Positions 35,528 to 40,016 of a stretch of DNA of 40,833 bases are shown in pieces; the first letter of the stretch is position 1; the number at the start of each line of letters is the position of its first letter. Position numbers and translations under genes: made by a program. The notes beneath the pieces are model-generated. The model worked only from the letters and a program-made list of their open reading frames with translations, had not been told where the DNA came from and made no database searches. Source of the DNA: Verrucomicrobiota bacterium (GTDB lineage: Bacteria; Verrucomicrobiota; Verrucomicrobiia; Limisphaerales; Fontisphaeraceae); NCBI GenBank assembly GCA_037139415.1, contig JBAXGN010000052.1, forward strand, positions 1 through 40,833, in the 5' to 3' direction.

Positions 35528-35555
35528 GAATTGGCCCCATTGCCCCTGCCAATTC
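35528..35555 (+). other. Hairpin at the IS110 insertion site
   Basis: Inverted repeat GAATTGGC (35528-35535) and GCCAATTC (35548-35555) with a 12-nt loop. The left flank recognised by the bridge RNA (ATTCGACCC, 35552-35560) starts inside the 3' arm, so the element inserted at the foot of this hairpin. Confidence 0.7.
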
Positions 35556-35573
35556 GACCCTGTATAGCTGCTC

Positions 35574-35815
35574 CGGACTTATTCACCGGCTGGGCGGGAA
35601 ACGTCCAGAGCATTCCCCAGCCCGGACGGTGAATAAGTCCGTCCGCGAAACCGATTTTATTATGCTAACTTTATTCCGGCTCCGGTACGAACATTCGACC
35701 CTGCGCGCCCGACGCGCTCAGCCCAAAGTCTCGACCGGAGCCGGAACTCGGACACGGATACGCATCCTCAGGTGCCGACGCCCGACGTCTAGCACTATAC
35801 GATCTGCGACCCGTG
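35574..35815 (+). ncRNA. Candidate IS110 bridge RNA
   Basis: Three hairpins in the transposase leader. Hairpin 1: a 15-bp stem (35574-35588 with 35627-35641) and an inner 6-bp stem. Hairpin 2: a 13-bp stem (35674-35686 with 35734-35746), then facing internal-loop strands 35691-35702 and 35718-35730, then a GCGCG stem with a CCCGA loop. Hairpin 3: stem 35753-35757 with 35811-35815, an internal loop, and inner stems with a second CCCGA loop. Hairpin 2 behaves as the target-binding loop: its left strand matches the left flank for 11 nt and its right strand complements the right flank for 8 nt. Hairpin 3 behaves as the donor-binding loop: 8-nt and 6-nt matches to the element ends. Exact RNA ends are unknown. 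Confidence 0.85.
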
Positions 35816-35837
35816 ACCAAACTCAGAAAGGCATCGT

Positions 35838-37115
35838 ATGAACGACCTAAATATAGCTCACCTCTCCCAAGCGGAAAACCCCGAATTCGTGGCTTTCATC
35901 GGCCTCGATTGGGGTGACGAAAAACATGAGCTGGCCTTGGTGGCTGGCCAACAGCCCATGGAGTGCCGCACCCTCAGCAATACTCCGGAAACGCTGCATG
36001 CCTGGTTGGAAGAACTGGGCCAGCGGTTCCAAGGACAGCCGGTGGCGCTGGCCGTGGAAACCAGTCGTGGTCCACTGATCCATGTGTTCTGTGCCTATCC
36101 CTGGCTGACGATCTATCCCATTCACCCGGCTACCAGCGCCAAGTATCGGGCTGCATTCAAGCCCTCGGGTGCCAAAGATGACCGTCCGGATGCGATCATC
36201 CAATTGGAACTGCTGCGCCTCCATCGCGCCAAACTGCGCCCGCTCCAACCCCAGGAGGAAGCCACCCGTCAACTGGCGGGCATGGTGGAGTTACGCCGCG
36301 ACGCGGTCGATCGGCGCACCCAAGTCCTCAACCAACTGACCAGCCTGTTGAAATCGTATTATCCCCAGGCCCTGTGCTTGATCGGACCGGAGTTGTCCAC
36401 CAAACTAGCCCTGGATTTTCTGGACCGTTGGCCCGATCCCTTGGCGCTTAAAATAGCCCGCCCCAGCACGCTGAAAAGTTTCTATTACCAGCATGCGGTG
36501 CGTTCGGAAGCGTTGGTCGATGAACGACTGGCGGTCCATAAAAATCTGCGGCCACTGACGACGGAACTGGCCACCCTGGAGCCGGCGCGGATGCAGTTGG
36601 CGCTGTTGGTGGCCCAACTGCGGGTGTTTCAAAAACATATTGCGGGCATGGAAAAGCAAATTGACGCCCGGTTCAGTCAGCATCCCGAAGCCGAGCTGTT
36701 CCGGCATCTGCCGGGGGCTGGCCCCGCGCTCCGGCCGCGGTTGTTGGTGGCGTTTGGGGAGGACCGCACGCTGTATCCAGATCCCGCGGCGTTGCAAAAA
36801 TATGTGGGGGTCGCGCCCGTCGTGGAAAAGAGCGGTAAACAGTGTTGGATTCACTGGCGCTGGCGGGCCCCCCGTTTTCTGCGCCAAACGTTCATCGAGT
36901 GGGCGGTTCACACCGTGGCGAATTCGGCGTGGGCCAAAGCTTATTATGACCACATGCTGGCCCACGGCAAACGCCGCCAAGTCATCTTGCGTGCGCTCGC
37001 CTTCAAATGGATTCGCATTCTCTGGAAATGCTGGCAGACCCGCACGCCCTATGATGAAGCACGTTACCTGGCGGCTTTAGCTCGACGCAAGAGCCCTTAC
37101 GCGGTAAACAAATAA
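35838..37115 (+). CDS. IS110-family transposase (DEDD recombinase)
   Basis: 425 residues. The N-terminal RuvC-like DEDD domain has Asp24 (FIGLDWGD), a Glu near 74 (AVETSRG) and the Asp pair of SGAKDDRPDA (about 112-120). A helical coiled-coil region follows (about 130-280). The C-terminal transposase_20 domain has the helix-hairpin-helix-like PGAGPALRPRLLVAFG and the APVVEKSGKQ motif with the likely nucleophile Ser332. Full length and with no frameshift, so the element may be active. A purine-rich AGAAAGG lies about 7 bp before the ATG. The enzyme should use the bridge RNA encoded just upstream to pair donor and target DNA. Confidence 0.95.
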   Translation: MNDLNIAHLSQAENPEFVAFIGLDWGDEKHELALVAGQQPMECRTLSNTPETLHAWLEELGQRFQGQPVALAVETSRGPLIHVFCAYPWLTIYPIHPATSAKYRAAFKPSGAKDDRPDAIIQLELLRLHRAKLRPLQPQEEATRQLAGMVELRRDAVDRRTQVLNQLTSLLKSYYPQALCLIGPELSTKLALDFLDRWPDPLALKIARPSTLKSFYYQHAVRSEALVDERLAVHKNLRPLTTELATLEPARMQLALLVAQLRVFQKHIAGMEKQIDARFSQHPEAELFRHLPGAGPALRPRLLVAFGEDRTLYPDPAALQKYVGVAPVVEKSGKQCWIHWRWRAPRFLRQTFIEWAVHTVANSAWAKAYYDHMLAHGKRRQVILRALAFKWIRILWKCWQTRTPYDEARYLAALARRKSPYAVNK

Positions 37116-37174
37116 TGGTGACTTTTATGCAAATTCCCTTGCGCAGCCAGGCTCAGGTGTTGGGCTGGAGTCCG

Positions 37175-37191: not shown

Positions 37192-37304
37192 TTCCGATCC
37201 ACCTGGGCGATTGGCTGATTTCTTTATCCCTGAGGTTGGTTTTTGTTCGGCAAGGATGGCATGACGTGTTCGGCAGCACTTCCAGAACTTCACTCCAATC
37301 TTCT

Positions 37305-37577
37305 TATTTTCGGCCTGATGCCCGGAACTTTCCGGGTGGAACGGGCTCCATTCCGGGTAGAACGGAGTCCATTCCGGGGGAATTAGCCTCCAATTCGGGG
37401 GAATCGGCGTCCATTCCGGGGGAATCGGCGTCCATTCCGGGGGAAATGGCTTCCGATTCGGGGGAATTTAAGCCCATTTCGGGGGAATTGGCCTCCAATT
37501 CGGGTGAAACGGAGTCCAATTCGGGTGAATTGAGGTCCGTTTCGGGTGAAACGGAGTCCGATTCAGTCGGCCTAAAT
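37305..37577 (+). repeat. 21-bp tandem array (array 3)
   Basis: Thirteen units of exactly 21 bp starting at 37305, clearest from 37347 on, with consensus TCCAATTCGGGGGAATYGGCG. On the plus strand they read as heptads S-I-P-G-E-S-A, S-N-S-G-E-T-E and similar, and the frame is open from 37236 to 37673. The pattern (Asn/Ile at 2, Ser/Pro at 3, Gly at 4, Glu at 5) is close to array 2 units such as Q-N-P-G-E-T-G. No Fn3-like gene follows here. 37578-37733 contains only a small imperfect hairpin (AACCCG/CGGGTT). Confidence 0.9.
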
Positions 37578-37733
37578 ATGGCGTGTCCGCAATCCTTTTA
37601 TTCGAACCCGTTGAAAATAAGCGGGTTGGAAACTTTTAACCATTTTAACCAGAATTCCCCGGTGGATTCATAGAGAAAGTCAACATAGATGGCCCTCGAC
37701 TAATCGCCGGGGGTTCGCAATATTGGACGTCCG

Positions 37734-39614: not shown

Positions 39615-40016
39615 GGTTTCAGGAGGGCGGAGAATCGCTCCTGGCGCAAGCCGGGGGAGGAAAGTCCGAACTCCATAGGGCGCGATGCCGCGTAACCCGG
39701 CCTGGCTGGGATACACGCGGGCAGTTTGGCGGCGACGCCGGCTGACGGATAGTGCCACAGAGAATATACCGCCGAAATCCGGGTAACCGGGTTGGTAAGG
39801 GTGAAAAGGTGCGGTAAGAGCGCACCGCGTCACGCGCAAGCGGGACGGCATGGAAAACCCCATCGGGTGCAAGGCCAAATAGGGGACCTCGGAGCGGCCC
39901 GTTCCAAGTCTCACTTCGGTGAGACGGGTCCCGGGTACTGGCTGCTTAGACAAATGATTCTCTCCCCCGTGGCAACACGGGGCAGACAAAAATCGGCTTA
40001 TAGCCTTCCTGAAACC
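39615..40016 (+). ncRNA. rnpB: RNase P RNA, bacterial class A
   Basis: The catalytic RNA of RNase P, which cuts the 5' leader from tRNA precursors. The P1 ends pair: GGTTTCAGGAGGGC at 39615 with GCCTTCCTGAAACC ending at 40016 (13 Watson-Crick pairs and one G-U). Conserved core: GAGGAAAGTCCGAACTCC near 39656, ACAGAGAATATACCGCC near 39759, GGTAAGGGTGAAAAGGTG followed by CGGTAAGAGCGCACC near 39795, and GCTTAGACAAATGA near 39945. About 402 nt, complete. Confidence 0.96.

What the first reader, a model, noticed from the sequence alone, without database searches (positions are those of the whole stretch)
35561..37159. An IS110 element whose bridge RNA predicts its own ends and current target
Seen directly: the leader folds into hairpins with two internal loops, and all four loop strands match the DNA at the places an IS110 bridge RNA should recognise. 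Left target strand 35693-35703 equals 35552-35562 (11 nt). Right target strand 35719-35726 is the complement of 37160-37167 (8 nt). Left donor strand 35767-35774 equals 37152-37159 (8 nt). Right donor strand 35795-35800 is the complement of 35562-35567 (6 nt). Each match meets at a TG. Known: IS110 transposases use such a target-binding and donor-binding loop RNA (IS621 work). Inferred: core TG, empty site ATTCGACCC-TG-TTGGGCTG. This appears to be an intact natural RNA-guided recombinase with readable guides.
Basis: partly seen in the sequence, partly recalled or inferred. Interest (0 to 1): 0.85.

Follow-up and report, generated by a model that had tools for sequence, protein, structure and literature searches.

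The report
RNA-guided IS110 element, unusual core
A bacterial jumping gene (IS110 family) that carries a readable guide RNA naming its own ends and its landing site; it is a known kind of system, but its lineage joins DNA at a TG/CG core instead of the usual CT, and its copies keep a natural record of which DNA strand decides the junction.

Summary
35563-37160 is an IS110-group element with an intact recombinase gene and a folded bridge RNA in its left end, whose four guide strands match target and donor DNA. Relatives support fold, guides and joints: 29 of 64 base pairs show compensatory changes, and guides match their own targets better than other elements' targets (1 of 720 permutations on the left, 2 of 720 on the right). 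Paralogous empty sites exist in the window's own genome and in two relatives.

One part of the reading is wrong. The right-hand core is TG at 37161-37162, not 37158-37159, and the empty site is ATTCGACCY-TG-GGCTSS, not ATTCGACCC-TG-TTGGGCTG. The extra T of the 8-nt right-target match is the donor base before the core.

The element belongs to a well-supported clade (100/99) whose core is TG/CG, where sister elements have CT. In members that use CG targets, every left junction carries the target's CG and every right junction the donor's TG (7/7 and 9/9 in three genomes). The guide core CG could read both by G-T wobble. This is a new variant of a known kind, inferred from sequence only.

The parts
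35552..35560 (+). Left target half (ATTCGACCC), part of an intergenic repeat
   Evidence: Equals left target guide 35693-35701; same repeat empty on contigs 26 and 121 as ATTCGACCT-TG-GGCTCC
35561..35562 (+). Left core TG, derived from the target
   Evidence: Aligned with CT in CT-core relatives and CG in G083, G148, G313
35563..35837 (+). Left non-coding end, 275 nt, encoding the bridge RNA
   Evidence: Seven aligned leaders, 29 of 64 pairs with compensatory change
35563..35568 (+). Right donor sequence TATAG(C), also the -10 box of the junction promoter in the circle
   Evidence: Pairs with right donor guide; TTGCGC-18-TATAGC when ends are joined
35574..35641 (+). 5' stem-loop of the bridge RNA
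   Evidence: z = -6.5; 13 of 26 pairs with change on both sides
35674..35746 (+). Target-binding hairpin
   Evidence: z = -5.7; outer helix 10 of 16 pairs with change on both sides
35693..35703 (+). Left target guide ATTCGACCC-TG
   Evidence: 11 nt identical to 35552-35562; guide-target permutation 1 of 720
35719..35726 (+). Right target guide CAGCC-CA plus one A that faces donor base T37160 (handshake position)
   Evidence: Complement of 37160-37167; permutation 2 of 720; handshake role by analogy with PMC11208158
35754..35813 (+). Donor-binding hairpin
   Evidence: Helices 4-6, 95-100% of cells paired over 7 sequences; alone z = -2.0
35767..35774 (+). Left donor guide CTCAGGTG
   Evidence: Equals 37152-37159; the variable base covaries with the right end in relatives (CTCAGATG in G148, CTG in G083)
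35795..35801 (+). Right donor guide CTATA-CG
   Evidence: Pairs with TG-TATAG with one G-T wobble; CTATA-AG in CT-core relatives, CGATA-CA facing TG-TATCG in G501
35838..37115 (+). IS110-family recombinase, 425 aa; D24, E74, D115, D118, S332 align with the IS621 catalytic residues
   Evidence: PF01548 and PF02371
37139..37144 (+). TTGCGC, -35 box of the junction promoter in the circle
   Evidence: TTG at the same 18-nt spacing in 7 of 8 clade members; function inferred
37152..37160 (+). Left donor sequence CTCAGGTGT, the last bases of the element
   Evidence: CTCAG-NNNN-core in all full right ends read
37161..37162 (+). Right core TG, derived from the donor
   Evidence: Homologous ends and empty sites
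37163..37168 (+). Right target half GGCTGG, part of an intergenic repeat
   Evidence: Empty paralogues with CCC-TG-GGCTGG on contigs 44, 64, 205, 238, 251 and 331

Best explanation
An IS110-group insertion sequence that moves by bridge-RNA-guided recombination. Shown by sequence: element 35563-37160 between TG cores at 35561-62 and 37161-62; an intact recombinase gene; a left-end RNA with a 5' stem-loop and two guide loops whose guides match left target, right target, left donor and right donor. Inferred from IS621: after excision the joined ends make a TTGCGC-18-TATAGC promoter that transcribes the RNA from about 35574; RNA-loaded recombinase dimers bind the circle (CTCAGGTGT-TG-TATAG) and a repeat-borne target (ATTCGACCY-TG-GGCTSS); top strands are cut 3' of the core and exchanged, and the bottom strand is later brought into line. 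The clade uses a YG core. Its usual donor guide core CG pairs with a CG core and, by G-T wobble, with a TG core, so a TG donor can enter a CG target; the left junction then keeps the target core and the right junction the donor core.
For: Pfam, PDB sequence and fold matches and catalytic residues; exact guides against shuffles; RNA covariation; guide-target permutation; different targets of near-identical sister elements follow their guides (G237 and G207); two G148 copies fit the same guides; empty sites in the own genome, G083 and G148; YG clade at 100/99; left CG 7/7 and right TG 9/9.
Against: One full copy in the own genome, so activity now is unproven; two relics show loss. The left donor guide mismatches the donor at the base before the core and at the first core base, though this holds in multi-copy relatives too. 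The left target guide of G501 fits only with a 2-nt shift. Genomes are drafts.
Confidence: 0.93

Rival explanations
1. One reading: core TG at 37158-37159, right target TTGGGCTG, empty site ATTCGACCC-TG-TTGGGCTG. A GT core at 35562-63 and 37159-60 gives the same joint.
For: TGT is repeated at both ends, and the left donor guide CTCAGGTG ends in that TG.
Against: TTG follows CTCAG-GTG (or ATG, CTG) in the clade whatever the target; CT-core relatives have CT four bases after CTCAG; empty paralogues lack the TGT.
Confidence: 0.04
2. The leader is only a structured 5' untranslated region or attenuator, and the matches are chance or copies of the flanking repeats.
For: The flanks are repeats, so some resemblance within the genome is expected.
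Against: Guides follow targets across elements in different genomes; donor-side compensatory change in G501; guides always sit in the same two internal loops.
Confidence: 0.02
3. The unequal cores (left CG, right TG) are an accident of few, related copies or of loss of other products, not a property of the reaction.
For: Few copies; draft assemblies; left and right ends in G083 and G313 lie on different contigs.
Against: Flanks differ between copies, the pattern recurs in three genera, and both junctions lie in the same copy twice in G148 with a CG empty paralogue.
Confidence: 0.2

Closest known systems
IS621 and ISCro4 (IS110 group bridge recombinases; PMC11208160, PMC11208158, PDB 8wt6-8wt9, 9t56)
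   Same: Recombinase fold and DEDD plus Ser residues; bridge RNA in the left end with 5' stem-loop, target loop and donor loop; guides that include the core; promoter formed at the right-end/left-end junction; insertion into intergenic repeats
   Different: About 22% protein identity; core TG/CG instead of CT; right guide with 5 matching bases plus core; 425 aa against about 330; target and donor core may differ by one base in the clade
CT-core IS110 elements of the same bacterial order (L017, L018, L037, L038, L039)
   Same: 34-47% protein identity, same end layout core-TATAG ... CTCAG-NNNN-core, same RNA layout
   Different: Core CT at both ends and right donor guide CTATA-AG instead of CTATA-CG
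seekRNA-guided IS110 element ISEc21 (PMC11187229)
   Same: Upstream non-coding region gives an RNA that names both target strands; natural redirection by guide changes reported (ISMch6)
   Different: Not compared by sequence here; the paper does not treat the core as a variable

Membership tests
IS110 family, IS110 group | DEDD RuvC-like domain and C-terminal Tnp domain with catalytic Ser | tested here: met
   PF01548 1.1e-23 and PF02371 3.8e-14; D, E, D, D, S aligned with IS621 and invariant; IS621/ISCro4 best folds
IS110 family, IS110 group | Long left end that encodes the RNA, short right end | tested here: met
   275 nt left of the gene, 45 nt right of it
IS110 family, IS110 group | RNA with target and donor loops complementary to target and donor, core included | tested here: met
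   the core is fully paired in both target guides, and by one wobble in the right donor guide
IS110 family, IS110 group | Insertion at a short core without target duplication; no terminal inverted repeats | tested here: met
   Empty paralogues in G000 and G148 rejoin at the core with nothing lost or gained
IS110 family, IS110 group | Circular intermediate with a junction promoter | tested here: inconclusive
   TTG-18-TATAG motif present in sequence; circle and transcript not observable here
IS621 and its near orthologues | CT core with near-invariant T | tested here: not met
   TG in the window, TG/CG in the clade
IS1111 group | RNA in the right end and long sub-terminal inverted repeats | tested here: not met
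   Right end is 45 nt; the RNA lies in the left end

The most novel reading that the evidence does not exclude
In this clade donor and target cores can differ by one base (TG against CG), bridged by G-T wobble with the guide RNA, and the junctions show that the reaction resolves to the top-strand product: the target core stays at the left end and the donor core at the right end. Bottom-strand heteroduplex is corrected to the top strand or does not persist, and the element keeps its own core through repeated moves.
Probability: 0.65. Interest if true: 0.65.

Novelty: new variant of a known kind. Interest (0 to 1): 0.52.

Why it matters
Core choice limits where bridge recombinases can be aimed, and IS621 with its orthologues is reported as CT with a near-invariant T (PMC11208158). 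A natural clade that works with TG/CG offers recombinases for other cores and sequences to compare. The unequal cores act as a natural strand label for a step the structural work left open: what happens to mismatched bottom strands after exchange.

Tried and rejected
Rfam: no bridge-RNA match; only a weak miRNA hit on the 5' hairpin at E 0.13, taken as chance. Core at 37158-59 or a GT core: rejected by empty sites and homologous ends. Distant plasmid relatives (L111-L114) were read to root the core change, but their cores could not be read with confidence and are not used. A sub-clade (L078-L081, L087, L088; left ends AA/GA-TATAGG, right ends CTCAGAGGT-GA where present) may have a third core type, but guides and ends gave no single core, so it is left open and its 'RA' label is provisional. 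A sigma-70 scan of the integrated copy finds no promoter at the left end, as expected if it exists only in the circle. Handshake pairing of the donor loop with target position 7 fits G237 and G207 but not the others and is not claimed. The residue aligned with IS621 G63 does not separate TG/CG from CT elements.

Full report
OBSERVATION. The four strand matches are exact: 35693-35703 = 35552-35562; 35719-35726 = reverse complement of 37160-37167; 35767-35774 = 37152-37159; 35795-35800 = reverse complement of 35562-35567. Shuffled leaders reproduce them singly at 5e-5, 0.010, 0.0035 and 0.056. The leader folds far better than shuffles (z = -6.9, none of 200 as good) into a 5' stem-loop (35574-35641) and two hairpins with the guides in their internal loops.

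PROTEIN. 35838-37115 encodes 425 aa with PF01548 and PF02371. The nearest solved proteins by sequence are ISCro4 (9t56, 1.8e-7) and IS621 (8wt6, 1.8e-6). An AlphaFold2 model (mean pLDDT 85) has IS621 and ISCro4 chains as its first eleven PDB matches (E about 1e-13 to 1e-12). D24, E74, D115, D118 and S332 align with IS621 D11, E60, D102, D105 and S241 and are invariant in the 14 aligned proteins.

RELATIVES. Protein searches of genomes of the same order and phylum gave close relatives at 51-61% identity (G137, G237, G207, G148, G083, G501; parts in G313 and G085) and more distant ones at 34-47%. In a maximum-likelihood tree the window and the close relatives tested form one group with 100/99 support (G501 was found later and G313 and G085 are partial, so they are not in it). 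One named relative is a Verrucomicrobia subdivision 3 MAG (L045).

RNA. Seven leaders aligned (A1) give one consensus; on 64 of its pairs, 95.2% of cells are paired (shuffled 83.2%, slid 32-39%) and 29 pairs show a change on both sides (shuffled mean 11.3, none of 500 as high). A covariance model built from them finds matches in 39 of 320 genomes of the order; the strongest are the training set itself plus G143.

GUIDES AND TARGETS. Over six elements, left guides match their own left flanks at 47.5 of 54 positions (permutation mean 22.2, 1 of 720 as high) and right guides at 29.8 of 36 (mean 17.4, 2 of 720, the tie being a swap of the two sister elements). G237 and G207 have nearly the same leader but AACATTGGC and AACAATGCC as left guides, facing GACAATGGC and GACAATGCC. 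Two copies in G148 with different outer flanks both fit the guides. Two elements were found after the rule was set: G143 has CAATCCT-CG in both flank and guide; G501 has TATCG at its left end and CGATA-CA in its donor guide, a compensatory change on the donor side, but its left target guide fits only with a 2-nt shift.

BOUNDARY. In CT-core relatives the right end reads CTCAG-NNNN-CT, then the sequence that the right guide names (L017, L037, L038, L039, L044). The window clade reads CTCAG-NTGT-TG with varied sequence after it. So the core is 37161-62, and the eighth base of the right-target match, T37160, is the donor base before the core, the place of the 'handshake' pair described for IS621 (PMC11208158). 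Empty sites agree. In the own genome, contig 205 has CCCCCGGCG-ATTTTACCC-TG-GGCTGGAGGTCGAAA empty; its paralogue on contig 101 holds a relic of the element's last bases, CCCCCGGCGATTTAACC[CTTGCGCAGCCAGGCTCAGGTGT]TG-GGCTGGAGGTCGAAA. On the left, contigs 26 and 121 have ATTCGACCT-TG-GGCTCC empty, and contig 132 has ATTCGACCT-TG-TATAGCT-GCTCC, best read as the scar of a deletion between GCTCCG in the element and in the flank. G148 has GGAGCGCTGGTTTCCAAAC-CG-GCTTAA empty, where its copies have GGAGCGCTGGTTTCCAAAC-CG-[element]-TG-GCTTAA. The target repeats look intergenic and partly palindromic; IS110 elements are known to enter such repeats (PMC11208160; PMC1525189, title and start of abstract only).

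CORE. PMC11208158 states that IS621 and orthologues have CT cores, the T almost invariant and contacted by the main chain at G63. Here the core is TG or CG. The residue aligned with G63 is Arg in most of the clade (Lys in G148, Gly in G137) but also Arg in CT-core elements of the order, so it does not by itself explain the change. The right donor guide ends CTATA-CG in the clade apart from G501 and the truncated G137 (both CA), and CTATA-AG in CT-core elements. CG pairs a CG core by Watson-Crick and a TG core with one G-T wobble (inference).

UNEQUAL CORES. In G083, 12 of 15 matches to the target pattern are CACCC-CG-GCTAA repeats. The 4 left junctions, found by a pattern that starts inside the element, are all CG; the 6 right junctions, found with that base left free, are all TG. 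G148: left CG and right TG in both copies, empty paralogue CG. G313: left CG and right TG, on different contigs. This is the product expected if top strands are cut 3' of the core and the final duplex follows the top strand. PMC11208158 reports bottom-strand cleavage several bases away and only suggests that mismatches are repaired. If products segregated at random, about nine independent copies would agree with probability near 2^-9 (own estimate; it assumes independence, and left and right ends in G083 cannot be paired across contigs).

PROMOTER. Joining 37162 to 35563 creates TTGCGC-18-TATAGC; TTG at that spacing occurs in 7 of 8 clade members. The integrated copy shows no such promoter. 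Transcription from the circle is inferred from IS621.

VERDICT. A genuine, probably intact IS110-group bridge-RNA element of a known kind. The new points are a clade with a non-CT core and unequal junction cores. No experiment supports activity; every step beyond sequence anatomy is inferred from IS621. Core diversity elsewhere in the IS110 family may be described in papers not held here, so novelty is stated against the two 2024 Nature papers and PMC11187229 only.

Noticed in passing
window 39619-40016 (+): RNase P RNA, bacterial class A, strong Rfam match (227 bits).
   Followed up: no
window 37330-37564: Tandem array right of the element: about 11 copies of a 21-bp unit (TTCCGGGGGAATCGGCGTCCA, 63-bp higher period), inside an open frame 37236-37673 that matches no Pfam family.
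   Followed up: partly
L037 (own genome, contig 151): A second IS110 element in the same genome, 47% identical in protein, with CT core at both ends.
   Followed up: partly
L078-L081, L087, L088: A related sub-clade with left ends AA/GA-TATAGG and right ends CTCAGAGGT-GA, perhaps a third core type; guides and ends did not give one consistent core.
   Followed up: partly
L050, L052, L054, L057, L060-L065 (genome G083): A multi-copy TG/CG-core IS110 element that breaks this draft assembly at ten or so contig ends; a good subject for long-read sequencing.
   Followed up: yes
L002 240-290 (own genome, contig 132): Target repeat with a 7-nt remnant of the element's left end (TATAGCT) between TG and GCTCCG, best read as a deletion scar.
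   Followed up: partly
window 35574-35641 and relatives: The 5' stem-loop has near-constant TTATTCAC / GTGAATAA arms across both TG/CG-core and CT-core relatives; it may be a protein-binding site.
   Followed up: no
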